From positions 1 to 64,000 of the forward strand of contig JAQGEQ010000133.1 in NCBI GenBank assembly GCA_034620365.1: DNA of 64,000 bases, read 5' to 3'. A program made the translations under genes and the position numbers. Source of the stretch: Pegea sp. RAD2-039 (taxonomy: Eukaryota; Chordata; Thaliacea; Salpida; Salpidae). The number at the start of each line of letters is the position of its first letter. The stretch's first letter is position 1. Under the pieces are notes generated by a model, which made no database searches, had not been told where the DNA came from, and worked only from the letters and a program-made list of their open reading frames with translations. This document shows, piece by piece, positions 8,970-32,399 of the stretch.

Positions 8970-9058
8970 AGGTGAAGTCATCTGATGATGCTTTGCAGCA
9001 AGTAATCAGAAGACATTTAAAATGTTTTCTGACTAAAATTAAGAATCATAATAAATAA
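8970..9058 (+). CDS. Possible terminal coding exon, family unknown
   Basis: After a good acceptor (GGTTTTTAG, ending at 8969) one frame reads VKSSDDALQQVIRR... for 28 codons to a TAA at 9056-9058, directly overlapping an AATAAAT tract. The residue mix (Ser, Asp, Gln, Arg, Lys) is unlike the Phe/Leu/Ile/Asn/Lys noise of random A+T-rich frames. It sits in the short non-family-A gap between repeat copies 2 and 3. I do not recognise the protein and found no partner exon. A chance open frame remains possible. Confidence 0.3.
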
Positions 9059-9108
9059 TGTCCAGTAATAGATTCATTAAATTAGATTTAAACCAAGTTA
9101 ATGTAAAT

Positions 9109-10722: not shown

Positions 10723-10858
10723 AGAAACTGCAGGTTTTCAAATAACCATAAATTATTTATTTATTTTATTTAATAATAACCATTATTTCTACGAGATTTT
10801 ATTATTTCTAATTCATTGGTATTTAGGGTAGCTTAATTTTTTTTCACATGATATTCAG

Positions 10859-11246
10859 ACTATCAAACTAACTGACATATTTATGCTAGGTGAGTTAGAT
10901 GATAAGACAGTTGAATTGATGACTCAACCACGTTGGGGGTTAGCGACGGCCCAGCTAACTATCAGCTGTTTGAAAATTACCCAAAGTTTAAAACAATGCC
11001 TGTTGGATACAAGTGAGATATTAACTAACTAAATTTCAGATAATCAACTTCAAAAAGTGAAAAATAATTGTAAATCAATTTACTCTTTATAGAATCGTCA
11101 ATTACAGTCCCGATATAATATGAGCCCATGTAAAATTAGAAATTTCATGAAACCAGCCTTGAAATTTTGTGAGTAAGCTGCAGAAAGAACTTTTGTTGAA
11201 AAAAGCACTGATGAACCTGCAAATATGATGATTGACTTCGGCTACA
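10859..11246 (+). pseudogene. Matrix metalloproteinase (MMP) fragment, broken
   Basis: MMPs are zinc endopeptidases held inactive by a propeptide cysteine in a PRCGVxD motif. After an acceptor (TATTCAG, ending 10858) the frame reads through GELDDKTVELMTQPR. The next codon, the cysteine-switch Cys, has only two bases (10934-10935), shifting the frame. Thereafter GVSDGPANYQLFENYPKF continues to a GTGAGA donor at 11013. A second block (about 11076-11246) reads TLYRIVNYSPD, then five extra bases at 11115-11119, then MSPCKIRNFMKPALKF, a TAA stop (11174-11176), and AAERTFVEKSTDEPANMMID, matching the start of the catalytic domain. The HExxHxxGxxH zinc site and the hemopexin repeats were not found. 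The family assignment is strong. The lesions make it a pseudogene unless the assembly is wrong at several points. Confidence 0.8.
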
Positions 11247-11321
11247 GTAATTTAATTTTGTGATGTTACCAAAGCTGGACTCTTCCTCGCCTTATAGTGA
11301 TGTTAAAGAGTAGACATAAGG

Positions 11322-12297
11322 CTAGTAATAAGATGAAAGTAGTCTTTCCTAAAAATTAGAGAGTAGTATGATTGGGAGGTTTTGGAAACTGATAATTTTA
11401 CAGAAGAGATAGTCTTAGCAACCATATCCTGCGCTATGTCAAGATCTATCATCTCAGAAACATTTTTAAGAATGTTGGAGTAGGAAAGAAAAGGATTGTT
11501 GCCATCATCGGTTATAAAACCACTATTAGATTGTTTGTTTAGCAATTAAGCTTTATTCTCAGGTTCCGTCTAAAATTGGATGTTTTTATCAAGTAAGAGA
11601 GGTACTAGTCAAATAAATGCTAAAAGTATTATTTGAAAGTGCATGATTTTTTTATCTGTAGTGCTTCTATATGCTTTTTTATTAATATCTTGCATTTTTT
11701 CTAAAACATTTAGAAAACTCCTTCAACCTTCCACTTTCTATAATTAATTTATTCATCCAATAATAGGTAAATCATTTTAGAATTTCATAAAACTGATTTT
11801 GTAACTCAAAAGTAGCTTAAACTAAGTTTTTTTTTCATATTCAATTTTACTGCTAATAAATTACTTCAAAAAACTGAAATTTATAAGTTTTTCAGACTTT
11901 ATTATTAAAACGATTGAAAATATGTTTACTAAACACCAAGTAGTCAGCAAATAGTTCGAAGCATTTAACAAACTATCGAAAACAAAACGAACTGCAAAGA
12001 TTACATAAACACATAACTATATTCTAGCCAGTTTGTTTCAAACAAAAACTCACTAAGCAGTGTTTGTTTTGATGCAAATTTTGCAGTTAACAAACTACTT
12101 GCAGAATTATTTAAACACATTACTTTCTAAACACAACTACAGCCTGAAATTACCATATCTTCGACTTTTGAGATGACAACATTGTTGTTACTGTCATGAT
12201 AAATATATAATTAATAAAAGTTAAACATTATGCTGTACATGACGTCATCGCTTCCTGATAGTAAATCATTTGATGATTCATCGCCGCCATATGACAT
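11322..12297 (-). pseudogene. Unidentified multi-exon gene with one in-frame stop
   Basis: Four exons join in phase. Exon 1 (12297-12239) runs from ATG through MSYGGDESSNDLLSGSDDV to a GTACAG donor. The intron is 48 bases. Exon 2 (12190-12154) encodes INNNVVISKVEDM, with its first codon split AT|T across the junction, and ends at a GTAATT donor. Exon 3 (11569-11402) follows CCAATTTTAG and begins TEPENKA, then a TAA codon at residue 8 of the exon, then a long coding-like run with NNPFLSYS and EMIDLDIAQDM, ending at GTAAAA. A 53-base intron leads to a short last exon (11348-11322) with TAG. The acidic N-terminus, a DLL and an NPF motif would suit an endocytic adaptor, but that is speculation. 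Exons 1-2 are the best supported. Confidence 0.5.
11571..12153. other. Intron-like A+T-rich stretch of the 11.3-12.3 kb gene
   Basis: This lies between exons 3 and 2 of the minus-strand gene. Apart from self-complementary TTTGTTTCAAACAAA sequence near 12033-12060 and AAACAAACACTGC-type repeats, I see no further exon. Confidence 0.35.
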
Positions 12298-12825
12298 TTT
12301 AGATTGAAAACCTTATATAAATAGAATCTATATATACTTTTAGTGATATAGTACATTCAATTTAAATCATCTGCTCTAATAAAATGTATATCACTTCTAA
12401 TTGTGATTTCATTTTCTTTTTTCAATTAACATTAGCGGTAAACAGCAATGACGAGTAAAACTGTCATATAAACTTAAATAACAACAGTTTTCACATGAAA
12501 TTTTGAGGCTTATTTAACTTTGTTTGCTTCTAACATAAAGCTAGTTGTACAAACTTTAAATAAACAAGAAAAGCATGAAATAGTTGTTACCAAAAATTTT
12601 CCTCTTCCTTAATATCATATTTTTTCATTTTCCTTTAATTGCTTGCAGAAAACAGATCGCTGGTTAGAGTGATCTGCTGCGAAAACTTCCCATTTATTAT
12701 TTTTATGCTAAGTGTCTTCATATCGCAATTGGATGCATTCTTAAAACGAAAAAAAGTATAAAAGCTTTTTAAATTTCTATCAATAAATTGTCATAACTTT
12801 ATAAAAGACAAAGATTTATTAAGAC

Positions 12826-12955
12826 GTTTCATTTATGTAGCCAAAAAAGAAAAACTAATTGATAAGCTGATAAAATTAAAACAAAACAAATTTTATATTA
12901 TCAGTTTTTAGATAATCTAGTTTTAATAAACTCTTAGCTACATGAAAACATTTAA
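12826..12955. repeat. Imperfect inverted repeat, possible MITE-like element
   Basis: The left half (CATTTATGTAGC near 12829, then AACTAATTGATAAGCTGATAAAAT) pairs with the right half (ATTATCAGTTTTTAGATAAT near 12897, then GCTACATGAAAA near 12937), around a short A-rich centre. The arms are roughly 55 bases with gaps. No flanking target-site duplication is obvious. It could fold as a hairpin if transcribed. Confidence 0.4.
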
Positions 12956-14590
12956 TTATTTCGATTGCTGAAGAAAATTGAAGTATAAAATCATTACCAA
13001 TATTTTTTAAGTTGTTATCCTGTTTATCAATCATCAAAATAATTACAATGATTTTGTATAATTATTGTATAATAATTAAAAATAATAAGATAAATAAATT
13101 AAATACATTCATAAAATATTAAGATAAGAAATAAAAAACTTTTATAAAACGTTTTTACATTTATTTTTTAAATCAAGTAATTTTGTTATTTGGAAAATTG
13201 GTTTAACTCTAAGAATATGTAAAGATTCAAAACAATTTGACCGAAAAAAAAGATAAAAAAATTTTATCGAAAATTCCTTAAAATAAAAAAATATATATAA
13301 AATAATAACAATATTTTCAACTAATAAATAGTTAATAGCATAAAAGAACTAGTACAGAAACAATATTTTCAGTCATAAGAATAGTTATTAATTTATTAAA
13401 ACTTGTTTATTTCTGTAAAATCATCATTTTGTAAAATATAAATATGTTGTAAAGTTGTAAGTATTAACAATGTTATAGTGTAGTAAGAAGAAAAGTCATG
13501 AAGTCAATTACTTATGACTTTAAATAATGATTTTAGAAAATAAATGGAAATTAAAGACAATTGATAAATAACTTTTGATTTTACCTTTAGTTATAGGTTT
13601 GAAACTAAGAATCATAAGCAGCAGTTACAGCAAGTTATAACTTTCTTATACGAATAGAGCTACCTTTGGAATAAATTAGCTTATATGTTTATTAGGTATT
13701 AAAAAATCTCCTTAGAAAAAAAACTAGATTTTTTTTTTTAATTTTTCATTAATAATTAATTAGCAAAGAATTAATTGATTTTTTTATTAAGAGTGTATAG
13801 ATTTAAAAAAATAACTAAAAAAATGAATTTGTAAAAAATGTTTGGAAACCCTCAATATATTTTATAAAATAACCTGCAGTGTAGGGCCATTTGATTTTAC
13901 ATCTGATAGCGACTAGTCCTGGGTGAATATCTCACAAAGGAAGTTTTTTAGAGTATAGGCCTAAATAGTTTTTGATGTCTAATTGTCTTGTTACTCTGTT
14001 TTTGGTTGGATCAAATTTTAAATTACTTTTTAGAAAATAAATTTGTTTAAATATTATCTTATTTTTTTTAAATTATATCTAAGTTATCATAGTTAATATA
14101 AATCAAAGTAAATTATTATTGATTAGTAAACTTTTATTAAAATATTTTGTTATAATTTTGTTAAAATCTTTTACTGCAAACTTTCGTTAATAAACTATTA
14201 AGTGTTAAATACTTTTCTATAATTGCTATAATTATTTATAAACGTTTTTAAAATGATTTGTTTTTTAAGACTCATTTATTTTTTGACCGTTTGAAATCAC
14301 TAGAAAATTTTGAAACCTAGATATTTAATAATATAAAAAAAAGAAAATAATTCTTAATAAATTATCTGTTGGCAGATTTGTGTAAACAAATTCTTTACTT
14401 TAACTTAAAAAACAGTTCAAGCAAAGAAAATATTTATGGCAAAAGTAGTAGTAAAAATAAATAGTGTATAATTTTTAATTAACGTTCTTCTTTTACTTTT
14501 AGTGTGACATCATTTTTGATTTGTAAATCTTATTCAAATAAATAAATTCATCAATTTTATAATAAGTTTTTCTGTACAAAATTTCATGTA
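12956..14590. other. A+T-rich spacer with one GC-richer patch
   Basis: No confident gene. At 13876-13985 base composition rises, and after an ACCTGCAG acceptor a plus-strand frame reads VGPFDFTSDSD, a TAG, then SWVNISQRKFF. This resembles a decayed extracellular-domain exon but is too short to assign. The remainder is simple A+T-rich sequence. Confidence 0.35.
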
Positions 14591-14645
14591 AATTTTTGAC
14601 AGGACTTAAGGGAATAAGCTTAGAATACTTTTTGATTTTATCATA

Positions 14646-15287
14646 ATGTGGAATTCTACAAGTGAAATCTATAAGCGACAACAAGGAGAAAAACGTCGTC
14701 AACAGGAAGAAAAACGTGTTCAACGTGAGCAAGAAAAGATGCGTCGACAAGAAGAAAAACGCCGTCAACAAGAAGAAAAACGTCGTCAACAAGAAGAAAA
14801 ACGTCGTCAACAAGAAGAAAAACGTCGTCAACAAGACGAAAATAGACTTCGTAAGCAGCAACAGCAAGAAAGACTTCAACGAGAAAGAGAAGAACAGGAG
14901 AGAATAAAGCGTCTATCTGAATATCAGCGAATGCAACAAACGTCAGCAGATTACCACCAAAGAGAAATGATGCTTCGTCAACAAGAAGAAGAAAAACGCC
15001 GCCAACAAGAAGAAAATAGACTTCGTAAGCAGGAACAGCAAGAAAGACTTCAACGAGATAGAGAAGAACAGGAGAGAATAAAGCGTCTAGCTGAATATCA
15101 GCGAATGCAACAAGCGTCAGCAAATTACCACCAAAGAGAAATGATGCTTCGTCAACAAGAACAAGAAAATCTTCGATTACAAGAAGAAAAACGCCATCAA
15201 CAAGAAGAAAAACGTCGTCAACAAGAAGAAAAACATCGTCAACAAGATGAAAAACGCCGTCAACAAGAAGAAAATCGACTTGATTAA
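14646..15287 (+). CDS. Lys/Arg/Gln/Glu-rich helical repeat protein, 213 aa
   Basis: Apart from the zinc-finger exon this is the only long intact ORF. The N-terminus (MWNSTSEIYKRQQGEK) is followed by four exact or near-exact heptads of KRRQQEE (residues about 38-65, a 21-base DNA repeat). Then come two tandem copies of a 58-residue, 174-base unit beginning at bases 14838 and 15012, containing ENRLRKQ, ERLQRE, EYQRMQQ and YHQREMMLRQQ. The C-terminus returns to KRRQQEE-type heptads and ends NRLD. The alternating charge predicts a long single alpha-helix or coiled coil, as in caldesmon- or MAP7-like helices, but no family can be assigned from composition. An in-frame TAA at 14607 sits just upstream of ATG 14646, and TTTTTGACAG ending at 14602 could be an acceptor of a 5'-UTR exon. 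Repeat C begins within about 5 bases of the stop codon, so the original C-terminus may have been cut off by an insertion. Overlapping open frames on both strands are by-products of the internal repeats. Confidence 0.6.
   Translation: MWNSTSEIYKRQQGEKRRQQEEKRVQREQEKMRRQEEKRRQQEEKRRQQEEKRRQQEEKRRQQDENRLRKQQQQERLQREREEQERIKRLSEYQRMQQTSADYHQREMMLRQQEEEKRRQQEENRLRKQEQQERLQRDREEQERIKRLAEYQRMQQASANYHQREMMLRQQEQENLRLQEEKRHQQEEKRRQQEEKHRQQDEKRRQQEENRLD
14757..15246 (+). repeat. Tandem coding repeats, 21-base and 174-base periods
   Basis: From about 14757 the unit AAACGTCGTCAACAAGAAGAA repeats with few changes, one unit per heptad KRRQQEE. GAAAATAGACTTCGTAAG occurs at 14838 and 15012, giving a 174-base period. 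Both periods are multiples of three, so changes in copy number would keep the frame. Such tracts expand and contract readily and would be expected to vary in length between individuals. Confidence 0.85.
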
Positions 15288-15291
15288 CAAA

Positions 15292-15900
15292 TCCATTTTT
15301 CTGCTGCGTTTTTTGTCGTTTAGTTCATACTTTAATGTAAGTTTAAATCAACAAAAACAAAATAGTTTAATCACAGAAAATAACTGTTCAAAAAATATGT
15401 TTCAACAAATTTATTTTTTAGTTAGAATTCTTCTTACGATAACACTTTTGATTAAATACGAAAATAAGTTTAGATTTTAACGAAATCAAAACAAGTTGTT
15501 TGCGAAATGTTTACTACCCACAAACATTAGAGTAAATATTCATGATTAGTATGATGATTCTGTTAGACCTTCCACACCAGAAATACCGCCGAAAGTCATT
15601 TACAATTTGGAGTGTTGAACATTTTTCAACATGCTGTTTACATTAGTAAAAAATTGTTATGAAAAGCAACTGCTACCGTATAGCAGTTGAAATACTTTTC
15701 AGTTATTGTTTGAATTGAATTTATTAATAGCACTAGATTTATTAATTTTATTTGCAGTAATACGTTTTTAAAATTTTACATTTCTTTTTTAACAACAAAC
15801 AATTAATATAGATCAAAAACGTTTTGTAAAATTAATCTAAATCTATTAAAACTTTTAAGTAAACTAGTTTTCTTAAAAAAAGTAAAAGTCTCGAGAGCTT
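15292..15900 (+). repeat. Dispersed repeat family C, copy 1
   Basis: Aligns with about 19274-19875. Shared landmarks are TTTTCTGCTGC, GTTTAATCACAGA, ACACTTTTGATTAAATACGAA, ACATTAGAGTAAA, CCGCC-GGCATTTACAATTTGGAGTGTTGAA and TTCAACATG. The stretch ends where the two copies drift apart around AAGTAAACTAG. No coding sequence is conserved between the copies. It starts immediately after the stop codon of the 213-aa ORF. Confidence 0.75.
15668..15688. other. Eight-base-pair hairpin in repeat C
   Basis: AACTGCTA (15668-15675) and TAGCAGTT (15681-15688) form a perfect stem with a five-base loop CCGTA. The second copy of the repeat has only a damaged version near 19661-19675, so the structure is not well conserved. 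Confidence 0.4.
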
Positions 15901-16029
15901 GAATACTACATTATTTAAAATCTTAAATGTGACTAAAATATTTATGATTAAAATGTCGACATTCAAATACAAACAATTAACTTTATTTTTGACAAGACAA
16001 TTAGAAAAAGCTTTGTATATCATAAAAGT

Positions 16030-16480
16030 TATTATGGTAGCGAAAAGTGAAAACAAAAAGGATTACTTCTTTATACTACTAGTAGCATGATGGCATCAAT
16101 ACAACGAAAAAAGAAACAATTTGTAAATATTTAAAATCTCAATCTACATATTTGCTTACTTACGACAGAATCATTCAGAGTTTAACAAGCAAAAGAAAGA
16201 CAGAAAATATGAAAGAAATATACAAGTCCACAGCATTCTTCATATCGTTATATATCGAAGATCTTTTCGGTAAATGCTACTGAAAGTATCAGTTTTCAAA
16301 TCTAAGTAAATATTAAAAGCAATAAACTCAGCAGTTTGCTAATCAGGTATAAAATTGAATGCCTTATAAGACAACTTACTTTCTTTGTGTTTGTGAGCTC
16401 ATTTCAAACACTTTAATAATGCTTTTCACACAAGTGTTAAACTATAAACATGTGTAAGACATCTTAATAAAAGATTATTT
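16030..16480 (+). repeat. Second module of repeat family C, copy 1
   Basis: Matches 18190-18625 and, in its first part, 22170-22320. The shared core is ATGATGGCATCAATACAACGAAAA followed by sequence with CATATTTGTTTACT, a GACAG-TCATT block and GAAAGAAA. In copy 1 this module follows the 15292-15900 module. At 18-20 kb the order is reversed, with 18190-18625 first and 19274-19875 second. Confidence 0.7.
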
Positions 16481-16589
16481 CTTGTTTGAAATTAATTCTT
16501 TACTTTATATATTTAAATTAGAACTTTGAAAAGAGTAAAAACAAACCTCTTGAAACTATTTACTTTATTTAAACTACTTTTGATGAATG

Positions 16590-16760
16590 ATCTTGCTTCA
16601 AAATAAGATCTGCTTTTGACAGATTATCTATGGAAGCCAACTACAAATACGCAAAGGAAATGACTTCAAATCTTCTGAATCTTATGCTAAGATAAATTTG
16701 TTATTGATTACTATAAGTCTAATTCATACAGATGATGTCATCAGCCTCTTATAGATCAAC
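16590..16760 (+). repeat. Third module of repeat family C
   Basis: GATCTTGCTTCAAAATAAGATC through GATAAATTTGTTATTGATTACTATAAGTC matches about 19895-20035, extending the family-C relationship. The distance between paired modules differs between copies, so this is not a simple tandem array. Confidence 0.6.
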
Positions 16761-16995
16761 ATGTCTTTTTGAATTATACATGAAATCGCTTATACCGTGT
16801 CACCTTTACTGAGAACCAAATCAAGAATGTTGTATTAAATATTAAATCAAAAGAGTTTAATAATTTCTCTACTAACATCTATAAGTGAAGAATAATTTAT
16901 ATCATTGATATATAGTAGCGTTAGCTTATTAAGACTAACTTCAGATATTTAACAAAAGTAAAATGAAAACAATTACACAACAAACCATTAGATTT

Positions 16996-17109
16996 ATGAA
17001 AAAGAAGTATGTTAGTCATTATTTATTTATACCAGCGTCGCTTAAAAGTGATAAGCAACTGAATAATGAAGCCAATAAACTCGGAAAACATAAATTCCTG
17101 TTATTATAA
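16996..17109 (+). CDS. Small ORF or exon candidate, 37 codons
   Basis: ATG to TAA. The frame includes FIPASLKSDKQLNNEANKLG, a mix less dominated by A+T codons than the surroundings, and TTTATACCAG near 17034 could instead be a splice acceptor. No family is recognised and nothing else supports expression. It may be chance. Confidence 0.2.
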   Translation: MKKKYVSHYLFIPASLKSDKQLNNEANKLGKHKFLLL

Positions 17110-17763
17110 ATTGCAAATGGTTTGTAGTTCATCAGTGTTAATACAATTATTCGTAATACATTATGATATTATGTCAATAAGTTGTTTCTCTAAATAAAGA
17201 TAATGGCATCAACATAACAAAAGCACAAAAGTTTAGAATTTGCAAATGATTCAATGAAGATTAAGATTATAGATGCTTGTTTACTTTTGATATTGTCTTT
17301 TAGAATTAAACAAATTTAAATGAAAAATTCTAGAAAAAGTTTTAGGACATTGGTACGTTCTATTAAATAAAAGATAGTTTTAGGATTAAACGAAATTGAC
17401 AATACCAGTTTTAAAATTTTCATGTTATCTTTTTTTTTCAATGATTCAATAAAATTTTAAAATCAGCATTTGAATTAGTACTATATTAATCTTAATTAGA
17501 ATCATTAGTACTATATTAATCACTTGTCTAATTTGTACTAAAACAGTTGAAAATTTCTTTGTTTTCTATAAACGAAAACAAATTAAGGTTAGTTTTTTTG
17601 ATCTCATAGAAATGAATTTTACAAGTGAATTTTTATCTTAGTTTATTGCTGTTTTTAAATTACTTATCAAATTGTTTGCTGCAGTAATTATTTTCTATAT
17701 TTAAGAACAGTAGTTTTGTTTTCTATTGAAAGTATTTAGTTATACTTCAATGGTCTATTAGTT

Positions 17764-17955
17764 TTGCCAAGCAGTGATGATACCTGTCTAGCAAGCAAGG
17801 GGGCGTTGTTGCGGTTGCAAATAAACACATATTACTTACTAAGAAAACTCAAAATTTACAAACAGGCTATTGATTCCTGCAAAATGACAAAATTCATAAG
17901 TTATATGTTTGTAGAGAGATTTGGTGGAAGGGTCTGCTTTAGTTTGTTTACATAG
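17764..17955 (+). pseudogene. Possible TPR-like exon fragment
   Basis: An open frame without its own ATG at the start (it begins TTG, just after GTT) reads LPSSDDTCLASKGALLRLQI and later YKQAIDSCKM, ending in a TAG at a GC-richer patch. The latter segment resembles the second helix of tetratricopeptide repeats (KYKQAI-DC-K-like), which are protein-binding helical hairpins. TTTGCCAAGCAG ending at 17774 is a candidate acceptor. With only one partial repeat the assignment is weak. Confidence 0.3.
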
Positions 17956-18189
17956 GAGACTTTTTAAATGTCGTTAATTCTTTAAATATTTGGGCAAATG
18001 CAGTTTTTTGTTGACTTTATAAAAAAATATGAAATTTTTTACTAGCTCTGTAAATGATAATAAACGGTTGACTAAATAGTATCGATGTCTTCGAAGAGTT
18101 GAAAACAGAAAACCAGTCAAGACCTGATAGAAACTTGTTTATACCATTATAATTTTCACAGAAGCAATTCCCTTTGCTTAAAGCTTTAA

Positions 18190-18625
18190 GACTTTTTTTC
18201 ATAAAAATTTTTGCTAAGTCAAATAAGATTAAGTACTTCTTTAAAGTAGTATGATGGCATCAACACAACGAAAACAGAAAAAATTATGGAAATTTTTAAA
18301 TGAATCATTATACATATTTGTTTACTGAAGACAGTGTCATTTAGAATTCACGTAACAAAAGAATGACATAACATATGAAAGAAAGGAAACAAGCTCATCG
18401 CATTCTTTTATATCATTGAATACAATAAATTTTTTTGTTAAATGCAAATGACAGTAACAGTTTTCAAAATTCTCTCTGACCATTATCTATTTTGTTGATA
18501 GACTGATATGATCGTAATAAATTAGGTGCTTTATATAACAACGTGTTTGCCTTGTTTTTGTGAGTTCATTTCAAATAGTTTCTGTATGCTTTTAACGCAA
18601 ATGTTAAATTATAAATATGTTTAAA
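18190..18625 (+). repeat. Repeat family C, second module, copy 2
   Basis: Direct match to 16030-16480. Both share the ATGATGGCATCAACACAACGAAAA core (18250) and a downstream CTTGTTTTTGTGAGTTCATTTCAAA block (matching about 16385-16410). Confidence 0.7.
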
Positions 18626-19273
18626 ACCTTTTTCACTCAAACTTGATGCTTTGAAAGTAAATATAATGTTTCATGGATTTATGTTTTAGTGCTTCTTTTG
18701 TTTTTTTCAGATTTATTTTGTTTTTGTTTCAAAAATAGTTTTATGTTTCTGAATGTAAGTTTTTAATCGTTTCAAAAGTTCAATAGTTTTGAATCAGTGA
18801 TTTTTAACTGATTGATTTTTTCACTTTTGTTAAATATTCATAATATAACATCTTAAGTTTATTTTTCAAAGCATTTTTAAAATCTTGAAACTTAACTGAT
18901 TTCAATTCTTAATAAATTTATTTTAATAAATATTTATTTAATATTTAAAGTGATAAAATTAAAAACTATAAAATGCTTACAGATTTAGATAAATCTTTAA
19001 CTAAATATTAATGTACCATAACCAATAGAATATTTTTACTCTGATTTTAATTTATTTTTATAAATTTTCTTTTTAACTTTATCATAAACAAGTTAATAAA
19101 ATTATTTTTGATTAGGAATATTTAAATTTATATTATTAAATTTGATAAAATTGTTTGAAAGAATACAAAAACGATATTTGAAATTTTTTTAATTATCTTT
19201 ATAATTAGTTTTACTTTAAAATTACACTTATTTAATAGCTGGATAACAATTTTATTAAAACATTTTTGTTAAG
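18626..19273. other. A+T-rich spacer
   Basis: I see no gene, repeat or structured element here beyond simple A+T-rich sequence. Confidence 0.5.
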
Positions 19274-20040
19274 AAGTCTATTTTCTGCTGCATTATATAT
19301 CGTTTATTAGTTCATATTTTTATGGAAGTTTAAATCAAAAAAATAAAATTGTTTAATCACAGAGATTAACTGTCGAAAAAAAATGTTTCAACAAATTTAT
19401 GTCTTAGTTAAAATTTTTCGTAGGTTAACACTTTTGATTAAATACGAAAATAAATTTAGATTTTAATAAATTCAAAACAAGTTGTCTGTGAAAACTCTAC
19501 AACCCACGAACATTAGAGTAAAAAGTCATGATTAGAATACTTATTCTGTACGACCTTTTACACCAAAGATACCGCCGTAAGGCATTTACAATTTGGAGTG
19601 TTGAAAAATTTTCAACATGGTATTTTCTGTGGCAAAAATTTGTTTTCAAATTCAACTGTTACTTTCTATCAGTTGGAATATTATTCAATTAATATTTGAA
19701 TTGTATTTATTATTAGCACTAGATTTATTTATTTTATTATTCTTATTTTAGTGATAAGTTTTTATATTTTTACAAATCTATTGTAAACACAAACAGTTAA
19801 TATATATCGAGAATTTTAAGTAAACTCAAACTAATTCTAATAAAAAATTAAAAGTTTCGAACGCAAGAATGATAAACTAGAAAAATTTCTTTTATTAAAT
19901 GATATTGCTTCCAAATAAGATCCGTTATTGGTAGGCTATGTATGAATGTCATTTACAAATTCTCTAAATTTTATTTAAAGGTAGATTTGTTATGATTTAC
20001 TGTAAGTCTGAATGATAAATAAATAACTTCACATAGCTTT
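19274..20040 (+). repeat. Repeat family C, first and third modules, copy 2
   Basis: Direct match to 15292-15900, followed by the 16590-16750 module. The imperfect palindrome GTTGAAAAATTTTCAAC (about 19599-19615) is retained here in a cleaner form than in copy 1. Confidence 0.75.
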
Positions 20041-22165: not shown

Positions 22166-22169
22166 AAAT

Positions 22170-22325
22170 TTCGTCATGTTAGCGTTAAGTGAAAAAAAAT
22201 AAGATTACGTACTTCTTTAAAATATTATAATGACATCCACACAACGAAAACTGAAAAAAAGTATATGTAAATGAATCATTCTACATATTTGTTTACTGTG
22301 AAGACAACAGTGTCATTATAAAAAT
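22170..22325 (+). repeat. Truncated repeat family C module
   Basis: ATAATGACATCCACACAACGAAAA followed by CATATTTGTTTACTGTGAAGACA-CAGTGTCATT matches the cores at 16085 and 18250. The match stops near 22325, about 70 bases before the exon candidate at 22398. Confidence 0.6.
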
Positions 22326-22397
22326 ATTAGCAAAATGTTTCGAAATATGTTTTCGAATTTCTAATCAAAGATTAATTGCTCTAATCTAGCATTGCAG

Positions 22398-22467
22398 AAA
22401 CTACCAGAATGACGCTGAATACAATAATGAACAGCCTACTCCGGCTCCAACTCCATCTTCAAATTAG
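22398..22467 (+). CDS. Candidate last coding exon, family unknown
   Basis: A branch-like CTAATC and acceptor CATTGCAG (AG at 22396-22397) precede a frame reading NYQNDAEYNNEQPTPAPTPS and ending SN-TAG at 22465-22467, entered after one base of a split codon. The Pro/Thr-rich acidic tail and raised GC content are unlike surrounding DNA. Downstream are a GC-rich hairpin (22527-22549) and AATAAATAAAG at 22566, a plausible 3' UTR and polyadenylation signal. I do not recognise the protein, and no upstream exon was found within 2 kb. Confidence 0.5.
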
Positions 22468-22526
22468 GAGTTTTGCATCTACAAATCTCGTATTAAAATG
22501 TTAATTTTGAGAATGTAGTTTAACGA

Positions 22527-22549
22527 GAGGTGCTCTTTTTAGGCACCTC
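22527..22549 (+). other. 3'-UTR hairpin
   Basis: GAGGTGC and GCACCTC form a perfect seven-pair stem around a U-rich loop (TCTTTTTAG), about 60 bases after the stop codon at 22467 and 17 bases before AATAAA. It is the most GC-rich element in its neighbourhood. It does not match the histone mRNA stem-loop consensus, which has a six-pair stem and four-base loop. Confidence 0.5.
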
Positions 22550-22565
22550 CCTTTGGATTTACTGC

Positions 22566-22575
22566 AATAAATAAA
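22566..22575 (+). promoter_or_regulatory. Candidate polyadenylation signal
   Basis: AATAAATAAA lies about 100 bases after the TAG of the 22398 exon. AATAAA is frequent by chance in this A+T-rich DNA, so the value of this call depends on the exon being real. Confidence 0.35.
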
Positions 22576-22897
22576 GAAATAAATATAATTAAAGCATCAG
22601 TTAACTAATGTATGTAAAAATGATAATAAAAATGAATTTTATACTTCTTTTTGTTACCTCATTATTTCTGCATCTTTTATTATGTATTTTTACTCCATTA
22701 TAACCTGATTTTGTTGCTACTAAATAGGGCATTTATGTCTTTATAATATTAACCACATAATTAGATATATACTTGAACAAAATATTTCCTATCTGGTTAA
22801 GCTTTCCATCTATTTCACAGTACTACTTCTTAAACATGTCATTAATATTTCTTTATCCATTAGTTATGCATATTCCAATTGAAAAAGTTTTTTTTAG

Positions 22898-22981
22898 GTC
22901 CTAACGGAGCATATGAAAAAAATCTCCAAAGCTGACGACGAATTCTTCCTATTTATAGCTTCTGTTTTATTTCCAAATTAA
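22898..22981 (+). CDS. Candidate last exon or ORF fragment, 27 codons
   Basis: A T-rich tract and acceptor (TTTTTTTTAG, ending 22897) precede VLTEHMKKISKADDEFFLFI, then ASVLFPN and TAA at 22979-22981. The frame begins in phase 0. The amphipathic composition looks protein-like. There is no recognised family, and it is on the same strand as the 22398 exon but cannot be its continuation because that exon has its own stop. Confidence 0.35.
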   Translation, partial: VLTEHMKKISKADDEFFLFIASVLFPN

Positions 22982-23268
22982 ACAATTTGAAAAGACTTTT
23001 TATTCCTCATTTACACAAAAGTTTATTTTCTTAATATGAATTATATTTTTTAGTTCATGTTTATCTAATCTAAAATATTCATTGGATTCAACTACTTCAG
23101 CTATAAACAAACTCTTATGCTTGTTAATGAATAATATTAATAATATTGTATAAATATTTCTCAAAATTTCTAAAAAATAAATATTTGTATAAACTTTTCT
23201 TTACTATAATTGAAATGATTAGAAAATTTATTTTTATATATATACAATTTTCAATAAAAAAAAACTTA

Positions 23269-23274
23269 TTTATT
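23269..23274 (-). promoter_or_regulatory. Candidate polyadenylation signal of the HP1-like gene
   Basis: AATAAA on the minus strand, about 60 bases after the TAG that ends the chromoshadow exon. The distance fits an animal 3' UTR, but the hexamer is common in this composition. Confidence 0.35.
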
Positions 23275-23334
23275 TTTAATTTAAAAAAAAAGTTCCATTT
23301 TGATGTTTAATAACAAAAGTTACAGTCAGAAACT

Positions 23335-23863
23335 CTAACCAAAACATATTCTTTCTTCATAATATTTGATGACTAAATCAGGAAAAAACAACTTTGCTTC
23401 TTTGATTGGAACTATATACAAACCATTTGATTCATTGCTGAAGATTATGTAAAAAAATTAAATTTAAAACTTGTAAAAACAATAACAAACCAAGAAAATA
23501 GCATATCAGTGATTGTATTCTTATCCCCAACCATAGATTCAATCTGCTTAACTGAAAGATTTTCAGGAAAAACTCTCCCATTTTCACCTGGTTCCTAAAC
23601 TATAAACTCAGCTTCATCAAGGACAGATTTTAGAGATCTGTAACAAGTTTAGTAAATATGATTTCATTTTATAAAAAGGAACAATGGTAGATCCATCATT
23701 TATAATCTAGAATATATTAATTATTTATAATATATTCTCAATTTTTACTTTTTATTTATGTTTTTTGTTTTTTCAGAAAGTTTGCCTGAATTAGATTCTG
23801 AGAATTTTTCTTTTTTAGCTTTTTTCAACTTCTTAGATGAATGTTCTTTTTTTGAAGTGTTAG
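23335..23863 (-). pseudogene. HP1-like chromoshadow-domain gene with an internal TAG
   Basis: HP1 (CBX1/3/5-type) proteins bind methylated H3K9 through a chromodomain and dimerise through a C-terminal chromoshadow domain. Exon A (23863-23749) encodes a Lys/Ser-rich hinge with SKKLKKAKKEK. Exon B (23637-23491) reads SLKSVLDEAEFIV, a TAG at 23595-23597, then EPGENGRVFPENLSVKQIES and MVGDKNTITDMLFS. Exon C (23437-23335) reads NESNGLYIVPIKEAKLF, FPDLVIKYYEERICFG and TAG. IVPIKEA and VIKYYEER match the LVPAKEA and VISFYEER signatures of chromoshadow domains. The introns are 111 and 53 bases, and both junctions keep the frame (AA|A and TG|C). The TAG in exon B is the only lesion seen. Skipping it by a nearer acceptor would break the phase. 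AATAAA (minus) lies at 23269-23274. The chromodomain exon was not located. Confidence 0.7.
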
Positions 23864-24481
23864 CTGCAAACTAAATGTAATATATTTAAATAATAACAAT
23901 TATATACAAAGTAAAATAAGAAACATTTAAAATTATATTTTGAAAAATATAATTCTAAAACTTATGATTTGTGAATATTTTATAATTTATTAAAAAGAAT
24001 CAAATATTATTGTTCATCTTTAAATTAATTAGACTAGAAAAATTAAAAAACTATATTAAAACAAAAGATACCCACAAAAATAAAGTCCTTAGCCTTAAGT
24101 TTCTCATAATAAATAGTTAATTTTGTAGAAAGTAACCAAACAATAAAAGCTTCATGAAAACTGTAAAGAACACTAGTTGTGACATAAATATTAAATAAAC
24201 TTAACCAACTAATACTATTTGTACAAATATGACTTTTTATTATCAAAACAAAATGCATACAAAAGGTTTTTTACAAGTTTAAATTATATGTTTATGAGTT
24301 GTAATAATGTTTATATAAACATATCAAATTTTTCACTTTACTATTTTTTTCCAAATAAAAATACTTAATTGTTAATATAGAAAAAAAAACTAATCGAATG
24401 TCAAAATTCAGAATATTTCTTCTCTTTAAACTTTTTAAACAAAACTTTAAGTTTTTTATTAAGGTAGCGAATGAATATTCT

Positions 24482-24690
24482 TTATTCCTAAATTACAAAA
24501 ATATATTTTTAGGATAATTTTGTTCTGCTGAATTTAGTATTTTCACTGCCATTCACAACATCATGATTAAATTAACCAGTAAGCCTGAAACATCTTCTTT
24601 TTATTCCATTAAAAGATCTTTCTCTTCTATGATAAATCCTGTTTTGCAAATCATTAAATCCACATTATCTTCTAGTTACATGTCTTCAGT
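24482..24690 (-). pseudogene. Possible decayed exon upstream of the HP1-like gene
   Basis: After TGTAACTAG a minus-strand frame reads DNVDLMICKTGFIIEEKDLL, ME, stop, KEDVSGLLVNLIMML, stop, MAVKILNSAEQNYPKNIF. The residues look protein-like but the frame has two stops. It lies where an N-terminal exon of the HP1-like gene might be, yet I could not align it to a chromodomain. Confidence 0.25.
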
Positions 24691-25145
24691 TATCCCTCAG
24701 ATACGTACTTTTTTGTTTTTAGTTAAGTGGAATTACTAATAATGATTATAATTATGTTATAATTATCTAATATATTGCTATAATGCTATGACTGAAAATG
24801 GTAAGTACCTTGACAATAATTTTTTTTAGTCTTAATTTTCTCATGGCTGAATTTAATTAAGTAAAAATTAACTAAACAAGAAGATAATAACGTTCCACTC
24901 TAAATATATTTCAGAACTAAATTTTAAAATCTAAATCAAAGAAATTTATATAATACAATAATTTTATAAATAATTAACACAATGTTTAAATAGTAAGTAA
25001 TAAAACATTATTTCAGTAAAACAATTTATTATTTAATAATAGTTTTTTTATTCCAAAAAAAACTTTCTTTTTAAAATAAAAAAGAGATTAATAATTCTAT
25101 TCGATATTTTATATGAAAAAATTAATTATGTAATCTTTTTATTAT

Positions 25146-25259
25146 TTAAGGTTTTAAGAAATAAACAACTTTCTGTTTATTTTTCTTTTTAGTGTTCAAA
25201 ACATCCCCTAAACCAAAATCTTCATAAGTTTTCAACATACTTGGTTTTCTTACTTTCAT
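25146..25259 (-). CDS. Small ORF, possible first exon of the HP1-like gene
   Basis: ATG to TAA, 37 codons: MKVRKPSMLKTYEDFGLGDV, then LNTKKKNKQ and a hydrophobic end. The Lys-rich, acidic mix is plausible for an HP1-type N-terminus, and the strand and position agree, but no chromodomain motif is visible. It could stand alone or be noise. Confidence 0.25.
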   Translation of the reverse strand: MKVRKPSMLKTYEDFGLGDVLNTKKKNKQKVVYFLKP

Positions 25260-26022
25260 GTTATAATTTATCTTATAGAATATTCTTTATTTTGATAAGT
25301 AAAGATTTTAATGTAAAAAAAGTTTTTATAAGATTTTTTTTATAAAATAAGGACTTTAAAAAATAAAATTTTATATATAAATGTATTTAAAAATTTTTTT
25401 ATATTTTTATTATTTTTCAAATTGTTTTAGTCATTTTTATTTCAGAAATAAATTTTTGTAAACTTTAAATTATCATTTAGATGATTTAAACATATTAAAA
25501 AAGATATTGTTTTTTTATTATTTTTGTAGTTTGAACTAGAAGCTATCACAAAATAATTTCTATCTTAAATTGTTTATGAATTTTTTTTTATTCCATCAAA
25601 GAATGTTTTGGATTTCAATGTAAAACCAATTAATTATAAAAAGAAAACTTTAAAAAGCTATTTATGATATAATAATTCCGAAATATATTAAATCATTGCA
25701 AAATTTTCATACAACTACTTATAATGAATACAAATCCATTTTTAAGAAGTTTATTAAAGATCTCTTTTTCAGAAAACTTTGATTTGTAACTTTATTCTAA
25801 ATGTTTTGATAAAGTAAGTCTTATATTCTTGAAAATTTTCATTTTTATAAGAATTGCTTTTAGGTTAAAAAAAATACTGTTTATTTTTTGTTTCATTAGA
25901 AACAAATTTTTTAACATATCAACAATTACATTGTTATAAACAAAATCATCTGATATAGTTCTCACCAATATTCGGCCTAACTAGTTAGATTAGAATAAAA
26001 ACATCTCGTTTAAAAAAATGAT

Positions 26023-26168
26023 TGTTTTATTTGGGGAAAATTAGTCGTAGTTTTAGTCTATTTGAAAGAAATCATACTGGTGAGAAGACATATGAATGTA
26101 GTATGTGGAAGAAAATTCACTAATAATTCCAATCTTTTAACTCATGAATGAACATATACAGACGATAA
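26023..26168 (+). pseudogene. Shattered C2H2 zinc-finger fragment
   Basis: The remains of two fingers are readable only by changing frame. The first begins CFIWGK, where Trp (TGG) replaces the second zinc-binding Cys. After a shift it continues RSFSLFERNHTGEKTYEC, which contains the typical HTGEK linker. The next finger has a one-base deletion after CS, then CGRKFTNNSNLLTHE followed by TGA. It lies about 3 kb from the intact zinc-finger exon on the other strand and resembles it (NSNLL, THTGEK), suggesting an old inverted duplicate. No function is expected. Confidence 0.75.
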
Positions 26169-27232
26169 TTAGGCATAATTAAAAAAGGTTATTACAAAAG
26201 AGATTAAGGGCTGAATATAAAAAGAAGGTTGATTAAGAAACGATGGAAAAACTAATAAAGCTAATAAGATGGCTATAACCTATAAAGTAAGACAAAATAT
26301 GCATCATGAAAAGAAAAACAAATATAAAAAATTTGGAAAAAAATTAATTAGGTAATGGCAAAAGTATTCACCATTATTTTCTTTACATTATTTGTTATCA
26401 GTTTATTTTTAGACTTTGTTTTCTAAATTTATAATTTACTAAACAAACTATTTCAATGAAATTTTTAAATAGGTATAAATTTTGATCGTTTTTTGTTTGA
26501 AAAGTTTAATAAACGTTAAAGAATAAAGCAAAATTTAGTAAGGAAACCTACGGATGCATTATTAAAGTATTAAATGATTGTTGTTTCTTTTGAAAATATC
26601 ATTGGCTGGAACAGCTGTAGAAAAGGATTAAAACAATTATTTTCTGGATTTTAAATAATAAAAGGTTTTTGTTAGCTTGAAAACCTAGACTTTTATCAAT
26701 ATAGTAGCTAACATTATCTGTCTAAGCTTTTGTTTCATAATAATTTCTGCATACTTTTATACTTCTTTTTATTTAATAATGTTTGAAAAAACATAAAAAT
26801 TGTTTTTTACTTTAATTGAAACTTTTCAACTAAACTTGTAATATATTTTATTCCTGTTGTAAGCTTTTGAATCTGTCATTTTTACTTCAGCATTTTGTTT
26901 CAATATGTAAGATAATAAATTCTTACTTTTTCAAAAGTGTTATAATTTTTTATGGTGCTCTTATGCAGGAAATTCTGCAGATCTTTTTAATCTGCTAAAG
27001 TTTAACAGATAATAGACAATTTATCAAATTCTGTGGAAAAATTAATCTGTGTGACTACTTGTGTCATTACAGAATGCGTTTTTGCATCAGATGATCAGAT
27101 GATGTAACATAACAATATTTTATTTGATTAAGTACTTATACTTTGAGATAAAGTTATTTCTAGTAAGTGATTTCTATATTATATATTTATTATATATTGT
27201 GGTCGGTGAAAGTAAAAATCATCTATAAAACT

Positions 27233-27493
27233 ATGGTGGATCCACATAAAACTACCAAGAACTTACGATCGAACATAAAGGAAAATTCTGACAAACAAAT
27301 TTCATCAAAGCAAGATAGCAATGGCAGTTGCCAATCTTGCAATAAAATTTTCTCTGGTGAAGATCCGGTAATAGAATACTCTAAATATATCTCCTGCTTT
27401 CATCTCAACTTTCCTGCTTTGACCATTAAATTGTTTGTAATTTGGTGCTGTCACAAAACCACTGGTTGCGTCATCATCAATATAAAATCATAA
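27233..27493 (+). pseudogene. ORF with a degraded PHD-like zinc motif
   Basis: From ATG 27233 the frame reads MVDPHKTTKNLRSNIKENSD, then CQSCNKIFSGEDPVIEYSKY, ISCFHLNFPALT and IWCCHKTTGC before TAA. PHD fingers bind two zincs with a Cys4-His-Cys3 pattern. Here CxxC, a following C, FH and a final WCC..C are in the right order, but the second pair and the Cys after His are missing or changed. PHD fingers occur in chromatin proteins and in ORF1 of some LINEs. The open frame extends 22 codons upstream without ATG. The assignment is weak. Confidence 0.3.
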
Positions 27494-27516
27494 ACGTCTA
27501 ACTCACAAACTTATCA

Positions 27517-27979
27517 TGACGTCATCAGCATCATGTAGTTAAACAATGTTGAAAGCAATAATGAAGTCGCCAGTTCAAGAGTTGATGACGTCACTAAATT
27601 TGATTATACTATGACGTCATATGATCGTTGTTTTCTGAGAAAGTCATTTATGGTAGTGAAGTCCTTCGATCTGGTGGTATTGTTACTTGTAGTGACGTCA
27701 TCAATTAGTAGTTTAGAGAAGCTAAAGAAAGAAAAATATTAAACGATTTTAGGATTATAAATAATGCTGTTAACAAATTTTACGTCGTCAGCTTTGATAG
27801 AAAAGAAGTAAAAGCAAATTTTGAATCAACAACTGATACACTGATAAACGGGTAGGATTGAGTGACGTCATCATTATCTATGTGATGATAAAGTTGATTA
27901 GGACATTCAGATAATAATAATGACGTCATCAGTTTATCTTCATATATCATTTGAAGTGATGATAGCAACGATGACGTCA
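27517..27979. promoter_or_regulatory. Cluster of seven TGACGTCA (CRE/ATF) palindromes
   Basis: Exact TGACGTCA occurs at 27517, 27586, 27612, 27693, 27863, 27921 and 27972, four of them followed by TC. TGACGTCA is the full cAMP-response element bound by CREB/ATF bZIP dimers. Seven copies of a CpG-containing octamer in 463 bases of A+T-rich DNA is far above chance. Spacing is irregular (26-170 bases) and flanks are not otherwise alike, so it is not a simple satellite. It may be an enhancer or promoter, or TGACGTCA-rich DNA typical of the genome. Single copies also occur near 12239, 41169 and 50266. Confidence 0.6.
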
Positions 27980-28181
27980 TTAATAACTAGTCATAAGTGA
28001 GTGAGTTCACTTTGAAAACTACTTGAATTAGTCTTAGTGAATTCTAATTTTCGTCATCAGTTAAACCACAACTCATTATATTTATTCTGCTTATGATAGA
28101 ATCTGAAACTTTTTTATTTTAAACTAGTTCTAAAAAAACATCGAAAAAGTTTTTTAATTTTTCATAAAAATCTTTTCATTT

Positions 28182-28197
28182 CCTGCCACCAGGCAGG
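28182..28197. other. GC-rich six-base-pair hairpin
   Basis: CCTGCC-ACCA-GGCAGG. It stands out because flanking DNA is nearly all A/T. No gene end is assigned beside it, so its role is unknown. Confidence 0.35.
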
Positions 28198-28393
28198 ACA
28201 ATTCCGTCATAATAAGACTTAAATAAGATGTTATCATCTGGCTTAAATGTTGTATAATACCAGTATCTATTTAGGTTTATTTAAACATATTTATCTAACT
28301 ATAGTGTGATTAAAAATACTGTTCTTTTATGTTATTTGAAAATTTATATTTATAAACAGTATGAAGTTATTATAAATTTTCTTATTCTCACAA

Positions 28394-28588
28394 TTGAGAT
28401 CTTTAGAGGTTAAGCTGAATCAGATGAATCTCATTAGTTTTTGGATGATATTTCTTGTGCTTCCACAACTTCTAAAAATTGTTCGTTTGCTTCTTGGTTT
28501 GAATGTTAGTTATCTTATTAAAAGGTTGCATATTTTATGCATTCTTGTTCAAAATCAAGCAACTCAAAATTTTATAAAGTATAAATGA
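28394..28588 (-). pseudogene. Possible decayed coding stretch downstream of the zinc-finger gene
   Basis: On the minus strand one frame contains HSNQEANEQFLEVVEAQEIS among several stops, with LLDFEQECIKYATF upstream. The composition is protein-like but the frame is interrupted at least four times. A plus-strand hydrophobic frame over the same bases is also open and may be its complement. It is too damaged to assign. Confidence 0.2.
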
Positions 28589-29205
28589 TTAATAAATTAT
28601 CAATTAATTAAACCTAAGATCTTTTCTCGACTTGTTCACTACGTAAAAATTTGTTACATTTCTTAAAATGTGATAGAAAATACAAGTTTAGTAATTTTGT
28701 TTTAAAATAATGTTTATTGCTGCCAGTTACATCAAAATACTCGCTTATTTGGTTTTTTAATTTTATTTTAATATAAGCCAAACTTGCAGAATCCCTTTTC
28801 TTAAAAAGAAAAACATTGCTTCATTGTAATATTTAACACTTTTTCACATTTATCTAAATTCTGCTCTGTAAATTCATTATTTAACCAAACTTTGTCTATC
28901 TATTAAAGAGATTGAAAAATGATTTACACCAATTAACTGTTTGCAAATTAAAAGTTAAAAAATTAAGAGATAAAAGCTTTCAAGTATATAGTCAATAACA
29001 CAAAAGAGTTACTATAACCATAAATAACAGTTTAAATAAACATAAACGTTTTTTGCTGAAATTAAAAGAAAAAATCAGAAATATTTAAAACAAACAAAAC
29101 TCTAAAATGTTGTTAGAAAAATAATAGAAAAAAAACAAGAAATACTAAAAACTGGAATGAGACAAAATTGATCTTTATCTGATCTTTTTTCTGATTACTT
29201 TGAAT

Positions 29206-29277
29206 CTAAATAATGTAAGTTGTTTGATGGTATGAAAGAATTGCATGATGGCCAAATTGCTTTCCACACACAATTCA
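29206..29277 (-). pseudogene. Remnant of a fifth zinc finger after the stop codons
   Basis: Directly after GEKPI, in the same frame, come TAA and TGA. TGA (29275-29277) occupies the position of the first zinc-binding Cys. The frame then continues IVCGKQFGHHAILSYHQTTY to a TAG. The second Cys, Phe, Leu and first His fall at canonical spacing, while Tyr sits where the second His belongs. The protein is thus truncated inside an ancestral finger array. Later readthrough could not restore a zinc site because two of the four ligands are gone. Confidence 0.75.
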
Positions 29278-29916
29278 TTAAATTGGTTTTTCACCAGTAT
29301 GAGTTCTTTTATGTTGTGAAAGAAGGTCATTCCGACTAAACTTTTTTCCACAAACAAAGCATTCATATGGTTTCTCACCAGTATGTGTTCTTTCGTGTCT
29401 TAAGAGGTTTGAATTTTGACTAAACTTTTTTCCACAAACAATACATTCAAATGGTTTCTCACCAGTATGTGTTCTTTCATGTGATAAGAGATTTGATTTT
29501 TTACTAAACTTTTTTCTACAAACAATACATTCATATGGTTTCTCTCCAGTATGAATTCTTTCGTGAACAATAAACTGAGATCTGCAACTAAAGCGTCTAC
29601 AACAAATCAAACATTCATATTTGTCTTTGCCATTTGAAATTTTCTTAAACAAAAGTTTGTTTTCTTCTTTTCCACTATTTTCTGCTGAAGCACTAATTTT
29701 GGTAAAAACGCTTTTCTTAGTTGTTGTATTTCCTATTTTATTGTTTGAACTGACTTCATCAAAGTTAATTCCGTGCCAGCTATCAAATTCACTAACACAT
29801 TCATTTTCATTTTTCTTGTTAGGTGTTTCACCTCTGATGTTACTTTCGTTTGATAACAACTTTCGCCTACAATCAGATTCTTTGTCGTCCATTAAATTCA
29901 GTTTCAATTTGTTGAG
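29278..29916 (-). CDS. C2H2 zinc-finger protein, terminal exon with four fingers
   Basis: A likely nuclear DNA-binding protein. The exon follows a T-rich acceptor (GTTTAATTGTAG, AG at 29917-29918) and stays open from CTC at 29916. An internal ATG lies at 29892. Numbered from TTG at 29907, residues 1-95 are a polar, non-finger region. Fingers run at 97-119, 125-147, 153-175 and 181-203, each C-x2-C-x12-H-x3-H with conserved Phe and Leu and joined by TGEKP(Y/F) linkers. Zinc ligands of finger 1 are C99, C102, H115 and H119. Finger 1 has an unusual CCRRF stretch. Translation ends at residue 209 just after a linker, where a fifth finger has decayed. The tip residues are largely Asn/Ser/Lys, so no target can be inferred. 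Whether translation starts in this exon or upstream is open. An upstream exon candidate is at 30245-30369. Confidence 0.85.
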
Positions 29917-30244
29917 CTACAATTAAACAAAACGTTTTAGTTTTTAGTTTAATAAAAAGTTAAAAAAAAATAATATATTATATACAAATCAATACGATTG
30001 TAATCTGAATTAACTTTTTGTTAATTTCTATGCAAAATAAAATTATACTTTATTCAAAAAAAGAATTAAAATTGATTCAAAAACAGTTATTCACAGTTTC
30101 TTAAAAAATAAATATATATTTTACAAGAAAATATCTTAAGTAAATTTTAAAGTGGTTTATTGCCATAGTCAATACTACAACAAAAATTTAATGAAAGTAA
30201 ACAATTCAAAATAGCCTGACAAAAGCTTTCTAATTGACAACATT

Positions 30245-30369
30245 TCACAAAAAGTCTTTTGCATTCAACGTTATCTTTAGATTTTCTATTAAACGTTTTT
30301 TAAAATCTCTTAATGCTAAGTTCTCTTCTCTTTTCTTCGAATTTTTGATGATTTGAAATAAATGTTTAC
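30245..30369 (-). CDS. Exon candidate upstream of the zinc-finger exon
   Basis: After ATATTTTTCAG (AG at 30370-30371) the frame reads KHLFQIIKNSKKREENLALR, then DFKKRLIENLKITLNAKDFL and TGA. The Lys/Arg/Glu/Leu pattern suggests an amphipathic helix, and the acceptor is good. It lies about 330 bases upstream of the zinc-finger exon on the same strand. A GTGAAA donor inside the stop region would leave a phase that does not fit the finger frame, so it may belong to another transcript or be a relic. Confidence 0.4.
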
Positions 30370-30371
30370 CT

Positions 30372-32300: not shown

Positions 32301-32399
32301 CAGATTTATGTTATTTTAATCAAAATATTTTAACTGCTACAGAGTGTATAAAATCAAATCAAATATATTTAAATGTATTATTTAATATCTTCTGTAAAC

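What the first reader, a model, noticed from the sequence alone, without database searches (positions are those of the whole stretch)
10859..30369. Several unrelated genes broken in one 20-kb interval
The sequence shows an MMP with a frameshift and a TAA, an HP1-like gene with one TAG but intact splice phases, the 11-12 kb gene with one TAA, a zinc-finger array cut by stops and a shattered second zinc-finger copy. Single lesions in otherwise coherent exons imply recent or ongoing loss rather than ancient debris. Inference: reduced selection, as on a sex-limited chromosome, a B or germline-restricted chromosome, or a pericentromeric duplication. Alternatively the assembly has base errors.
Basis: partly seen in the sequence, partly recalled or inferred. 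Interest (0 to 1): 0.75.

Follow-up and report, generated by a model that had tools for sequence, protein, structure and literature searches.

The report
Copied gene patchwork with old fossils
What looked like a stretch of freshly broken genes is one copy of a patchwork that this animal, probably a sea-squirt relative, has copied many times; one of the "broken" genes is whole, most of the real damage checked is old and shared with other copies, and one lesion was found in this copy alone.

Summary
The window starts contig C267 of a 105.7-Mb, AT-rich animal genome, probably a tunicate. The flagged interval is one copy of a segmental-duplication mosaic; pieces over 1 kb recur at 88-98% identity, the listed matches falling on 12 contigs (1.95 Mb). 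Comparing copies sorts the five claimed breaks. (1) The zinc-finger gene (29281-29892, minus) is whole: 204 codons, four fingers, with a TAATGA end that 7 of 9 sequences read reach in frame; 21 of 21 full-length close matches, window included, are stop-free over 114 codons. (2) The HP1-like gene has a TAG (23595-23597) seen only here; its chromoshadow exons are open in 16 of 16 other copies. (3) The MMP piece is an old gelatinase fragment; its three lesions are in all four amplicon copies found and missing from every C80 copy covering them. (4) The 11.3-11.5 kb "gene" is a fragment of a dispersed repeat ORF. (5) The second zinc-finger piece shares its frameshift with four other copies. The pattern is old fossils beside open multi-copy genes, not recent regional decay. 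Whether these contigs are sex-limited, B, germline-restricted or pericentromeric cannot be told.

The parts
12213..32237 (.). Mosaic of duplicated blocks (breakpoints near 12213, 22315, 26128-26362, 29565, 32237)
   Evidence: matches over 1 kb at 88-98% on C261, C267 (elsewhere), C273, C274, C275, C286, C287, C64, C98, C104, C136; C109 matches other window parts
10832..11267 (+). MMP (gelatinase-type) pseudogene fragment: end of prodomain and first catalytic exon; 1-bp deletion, 5-bp insertion, in-frame TAA; HExxH, fibronectin-II and hemopexin exons not seen here
11306..11545 (-). 80-aa open piece of a dispersed repeat; relatives elsewhere have ORFs of up to about 1024 aa (transposon-like, inferred)
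14646..15287 (+). Intact ORF, 213 aa, Gln/Glu/Arg-rich repeats (21-bp and 174-bp units); relatives on other contigs include ORFs of 398-671 aa
23335..23437 (-). HP1-like exon D (second half of the chromoshadow domain, with the normal end)
   Evidence: PF01393
23491..23637 (-). HP1-like exon C; TAG at 23595-23597 in this copy only
   Evidence: 16 of 16 other copies have a Tyr codon there
23749..23863 (-). HP1-like exon B (lysine-rich), in phase with exon C
   Evidence: window and two other copies
25146..25259 (-). Candidate 5' exon of the HP1-like gene, resembling the start of a chromodomain by eye only (no Pfam chromodomain hit)
24556..24705 (-). Piece between the candidate 5' exon and the chromoshadow exons; at least two in-frame stops in every close match
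   Evidence: (13 of 13, window included)
26014..26160 (+). Shattered C2H2 finger remnant; its frameshift recurs in the other copies read
   Evidence: 4 of 4 other copies; two of these reads cover only part
29275..29892 (-). Intact multi-copy C2H2 zinc-finger gene: 204 aa, 4 fingers, TAATGA end; degenerate finger beyond the stop
27517..27979 (.). Seven TGACGTCA palindromes in 463 bp between the dead and the open zinc-finger genes; role unknown
   Evidence: 10 in the window, about 0.23 expected

Best explanation
The interval is one unit of a large ampliconic (segmentally duplicated) compartment. Copying has spread blocks that contain both fossils and open genes. The fossils (MMP fragment, second zinc-finger piece, the 24.6-kb remnant beside the HP1-like gene, and a dispersed-repeat fragment) were mostly broken before the blocks spread and were carried as passengers, so their lesions recur in the other copies. 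The open cargo is a multi-copy C2H2 zinc-finger gene with 4-6 fingers and, less surely, a Q/E/R-rich repeat protein. A third family, HP1-like with a chromoshadow domain, is open over its 3' exons but has an unresolved 5' end; its window copy has one private stop, the ordinary loss of one member of a redundant family. Likely mechanism (inferred): unequal exchange and insertion spread the blocks; gain and loss of whole 84-bp units changes finger number; weak purifying selection keeps most zinc-finger and chromoshadow copies open.
For: Multi-copy: 58, 103 and 120 listed matches. MMP: three lesions in 4 of 4 amplicon copies; insertion and TAA in 0 of 5 C80 copies, deletion in 0 of 4 that cover it. 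HP1-like: 16 of 16 other copies open in exons C and D. Zinc finger: 21 of 21 full-length close matches, window included, stop-free over 114 aa; 7 of 9 sequences run in frame to the TAATGA with 4, 4, 5, 5, 6, 6, 6 fingers. Q/E/R gene: 6 of 8 start-bearing sequences complete. Neutral simulation, 400 runs each: zinc-finger N/S ratio 0.446 against null 0.885 (P 0.025), 0 of 9 with stops against null mean 4.5 (P 0.02); chromoshadow exons of 17 copies, ratio 0.435 against 0.99 (P 0.0075). Second zinc-finger piece: frameshift in 4 of 4 other copies.
Against: Selection signals are modest. For the 15 close chromoshadow copies alone P is 0.09 (ratio) and 0.395 (stops); for all 17 the stop-count P is 0.0775. 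For the Q/E/R gene no constraint was shown: over 20 codons, 0-2 synonymous and 0-3 amino-acid-changing codon differences per pair. The 21 of 21 count is of full-length matches; broken copies would show as partial or weaker ones, and C275 has four such matches, three of them with stops. The HP1-like 5' end is unresolved: the acceptor of one candidate exon is lost in both other copies read, and no chromodomain was found by Pfam, so this family could be 5'-truncated relics. No transcript evidence. Some copies are 99.5-100% identical over the stretch compared and may be haplotigs, so copy counts are upper bounds for loci.
Confidence: 0.75

Rival explanations
1. The contigs belong to a low-recombination chromosome (sex-limited, B or germline-restricted) on which genes are decaying now, and amplification is part of that biology.
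For: The listed matches of window segments fall on 12 contigs under 500 kb; one private HP1-like stop; 2 of 9 zinc-finger sequences broken.
Against: The lesions compared are mostly shared and old; zinc-finger copies are kept open; most tunicates are hermaphrodites (recalled). The contig lists are capped, so confinement is not proven. No coverage data.
Confidence: 0.2
2. Plain heterochromatic (pericentromeric or subtelomeric) segmental duplications in which nothing is functional; open frames persist because copies are young.
For: High identity, mosaic breakpoints, transposon-like fragments; weak selection signal within the closest chromoshadow copies; no constraint shown in the Q/E/R gene.
Against: Zinc-finger open frames exceed the neutral expectation (P 0.02) and the N/S ratio is low (P 0.025); 17-copy chromoshadow ratio P 0.0075; finger arrays change in whole units in the intact copies.
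Confidence: 0.3
3. Base errors in the assembly created the stops.
For: The HP1-like TAG is a single-base difference in one copy.
Against: MMP and second zinc-finger lesions recur in separately assembled copies, and the zinc-finger end is common to the copies read.
Confidence: 0.04

Closest known systems
Ampliconic multi-copy gene regions (e.g. mammalian Y and X ampliconic genes; recalled)
   Same: Many similar copies, a mix of intact genes and pseudogenes
   Different: No sign that this is a sex chromosome; cargo is zinc-finger, Q/E/R and HP1-like genes; palindromes and gene conversion not tested
Partial (single-domain) HP1 genes of Drosophila (PMC3380853, passages seen)
   Same: Chromoshadow domain with no detectable chromodomain
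   Different: [quoted passage not shown] here 17 related copies were found, if they are partial HP1s
Clustered C2H2 zinc-finger expansions (KRAB-ZNF of tetrapods, ZAD-ZNF of insects; recalled, and listings)
   Same: Many related genes, arrays changing by whole fingers, HTGEKP linkers, a shared N-terminal region
   Different: No KRAB or ZAD among the 25 of 34 Pfam families shown; N-terminus unassigned
Gelatinases MMP-2 and MMP-9
   Same: A C80 relative (L053) carries fibronectin-II repeats; an 86-aa piece of it hits human MMP-9 at 6e-66
   Different: The window piece lacks the HExxH and hemopexin parts and is a pseudogene

Membership tests
HP1 | Chromoshadow domain | tested here: met
   PF01393 E 7.4e-8 on joined window exons C+D, 3.5e-6 on the C273 copy; best PDB chains are HP1-beta/CBX1 entries, 7e-4 to 1e-3
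HP1 | Chromodomain | tested here: not met
   no PF00385 hit on the candidate pieces; the central piece has at least 2 stops in 13 of 13 close matches
HP1 | Complete coding gene with a start | tested here: inconclusive
   5' exons unresolved; candidate acceptor lost in 2 of 2 other copies read
C2H2 zinc-finger proteins | Tandem C2H2 fingers with HTGEKP linkers in an open frame | tested here: met
KRAB-ZNF | KRAB domain | tested here: not met
   not among the 25 of 34 Pfam families shown for the window protein
Matrix metalloproteinase | Prodomain cysteine switch and HExxH catalytic exon | tested here: not met
   switch frameshifted; no HExxH in the three + frames of 10800-12100
Ampliconic region | Multiple copies at high identity with intact gene families | tested here: met
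Sex-limited, B or germline-restricted chromosome | Depth or presence differing by sex, individual or tissue | not testable with these tools
   no reads
Tunicate genome | Glycosyl hydrolase 6, and MMP with fibronectin-II repeats (markers recalled) | tested here: met
   one partial GH6 exon on C14, Pfam 1.4e-8; MMP-9-like with FN2. No rRNA check; COX1 not found

The most novel reading that the evidence does not exclude
A selfish or dispensable chromosome (B or germline-restricted) in a tunicate that co-amplifies a DNA-binding zinc-finger gene and an HP1-like chromoshadow gene, so that it carries both target recognition and interference with heterochromatin, as expected of a drive or silencing arms race.
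Probability: 0.08. Interest if true: 0.8.

Novelty: new member of a known kind. Interest (0 to 1): 0.42.

Why it matters
It shows how comparing copies separates old passenger lesions, a false lesion and a new one, and it points to a compartment in a probable tunicate where zinc-finger and HP1-like genes have been copied near each other. If expressed in the germline, these would be candidates for genome-defence or drive genes (inference).

Tried and rejected
Rejected: regional recent decay (shared lesions); the chromodomain reading of 24556-24705 (no Pfam hit, stops in 13 of 13 close matches, and diverged DNA relatives on C1 and C25); 24072-24160 as a sure exon (its acceptor is lost in both other copies read); an intact MMP. 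No result: Rfam at gathering cut-offs (0 hits); COX1 for organism identity (0 hits). Paper searches on a very AT-rich tunicate genome, on tunicate DNA elimination or B chromosomes, on ampliconic HP1 and zinc-finger genes and on tunicate zinc-finger expansion: I saw listings only and recognised no match in the rows listed. Of papers, I saw passages of PMC13326754, PMC8704543 (tunicates have low G+C, lowest in molgulids) and PMC3380853. A last-finger N/S ratio (0.889) is not used because L077 entered it out of register. L097 was dropped from the chromoshadow counts as a non-member (score 74).
Full report
Setting. The window is G000:C267:1-64000, contig length 245 kb, in a 105.7-Mb assembly of 387 contigs; window G+C is 19-28% in 2-kb steps. 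The assembly has an MMP with fibronectin type II repeats inside the catalytic domain, a piece of which hits human MMP-9 best among solved structures, and one partial glycosyl hydrolase 6 exon. From recall, these together point to a tunicate. The species was not identified; COX1 was not found.

Duplication. DNA searches with 9000-19000, 19001-31000 and 31001-50000 gave 58, 103 and 120 matches. All listed places lie on C261, C267, C273, C274, C275, C286, C287, C64, C98, C104, C109 and C136, together 1948 kb. Matches over 1 kb are 88-98% identical; one search also has diverged ones. Only the best candidates are scored: a separate search with 11000-12000 found further copies that one search did not list, at 89-91% on C166, C128 and C36, 87-88% partial ones on C80, and 77-80% partial ones on other contigs, large ones included. 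So confinement to 12 contigs is an impression, not a proof. Among pairs of fetched copies compared, identity runs from about 91% to 100%; some (99.5% over 7.4 kb; 100% over 971 bases) may be haplotigs. Around the 17 HP1-like copies, the Q/E/R gene lies 8.2-9.8 kb to one side, on the opposite strand, in 6; the zinc-finger gene 6.2-7.3 kb to the other side, on the same strand, in 5; both in 2, the window and C261:48371. This is a mosaic, not one fixed unit.

MMP. The window shares with L002, L003 and L004 (98-99% copies; L017 is the same locus as L004) a 1-base deletion in the cysteine-switch motif, a 5-base insertion and a TAA. None of five C80 copies has the last two; the switch region is covered in four of the five and is intact there. 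After about 11267 the resemblance to C80 stops. On C128 the two flanking parts lie about 3.8 kb apart, so a deletion probably joined them here (inference).

11.3-11.55 kb. The 80-aa minus ORF is open in the window. Of the 150 matches scored, 14 are close copies (83-100%, 3 of 14 without a stop inside, the window among them); the other 136 are 53-64% identical, many of them parts of ORFs of up to about 1024 aa on many contigs, large ones included. I read it as a transposon-like fragment; its class was not determined.

HP1-like gene. PF01393 gives 22 hits; 17 belong to this family (15 on the contigs above, 2 on C73) and 5 do not (C81, C4, C3, C257, C265). Exons B, C and D splice in phase with GT and AG ends in the window and in two other copies. 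The window alone has TAG at 23595-23597; 16 of 16 other copies have Tyr. N/S ratio (proportions) is 0.49 within the 15 close copies and 0.41 between these and C73; significance is mixed. Exon and intron divergence among the 15 close copies is the same, 2.6%, which is no sign of constraint. The 5' end is not solved. The piece 24556-24705 has at least two stops in 13 of 13 close matches, window included, so it was lost before the copying or was never an exon.

Zinc-finger gene. The window ORF is 204 aa with four fingers. Seven of nine sequences read, the window included, run in frame to TAATGA (4-6 fingers, lengths differing by whole fingers); L071 is frameshifted and L077 has a TGA, though both keep the same end further on. 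Two of the nine (L075, L076) are identical. Genome-wide, 21 of 21 full-length matches at 87-100% identity, window included, have no stop over the 114-aa query. The other 120 matches are 26-77% identical; four lie on C275, three of these with stops. Many of the rest, on C254, C255, C60, C266, C95, C91 and C89, lie in ORFs of up to 643 aa; many are weak (to E 1e-3), so only the strongest, on C91, C266 and C95, are sure relatives. N/S is 0.58 for the N-terminal 90 codons and 0.19 for the first finger. Neutral simulation on 354 bases: ratio P 0.025, stops P 0.02. It uses a UPGMA tree and a substitution spectrum from three HP1-like copies, so the P values are rough.

Of 8 sequences with the start, 6 are complete (window 213, others 206, 213, 213, 213, 127 aa), one is frameshifted and one runs off its contig. 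Three further copies lack the start (L014-L016). Relatives on C36, C128, C23, C238, C271, C178, C171, C278 and C31 include ORFs of 398-671 aa. No Pfam family was assigned; selection was not shown.

Second zinc-finger piece. The remnant at 26.0-26.16 kb is split between two frames in the window and in 4 of 4 other copies read; L102 has fewer stops, and the reads of L103 and L104 cover only part.

Conclusion. The finding is real in part: there are true pseudogene pieces and one private stop. But the cluster of breaks is mostly a result of old passengers in a copied mosaic, one repeat fragment and one misread natural end. The bold reading, a dispensable or germline chromosome with co-amplified zinc-finger and HP1-like genes, is not excluded but has no direct support.

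Noticed in passing
window 27517-27979 (also 12240, 41169, 50266): Ten TGACGTCA palindromes in the window against about 0.23 expected; seven within 463 bp.
   Followed up: partly
C254, C255, C60, C266, C95, C91, C89: Clusters of mostly open C2H2 zinc-finger ORFs, distantly related to the window gene, up to 643 aa.
   Followed up: partly
L079 (C4:1156480-1157300): Single-exon HP1-like ORF with two chromodomain stretches and a chromoshadow domain.
   Followed up: no
C80:623-660 kb: Array of five MMP genes, gelatinase-type in the one copy displayed.
   Followed up: partly
many contigs: A dispersed repeat with dozens of copies lying in open frames of up to about 1024 aa, so possibly recently active.
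   Followed up: no
window 27233-27493 (+): Open frame with a CxxC-rich, PHD-like look by eye; Pfam gave only a weak hit (ForC_N, 0.013).
   Followed up: no
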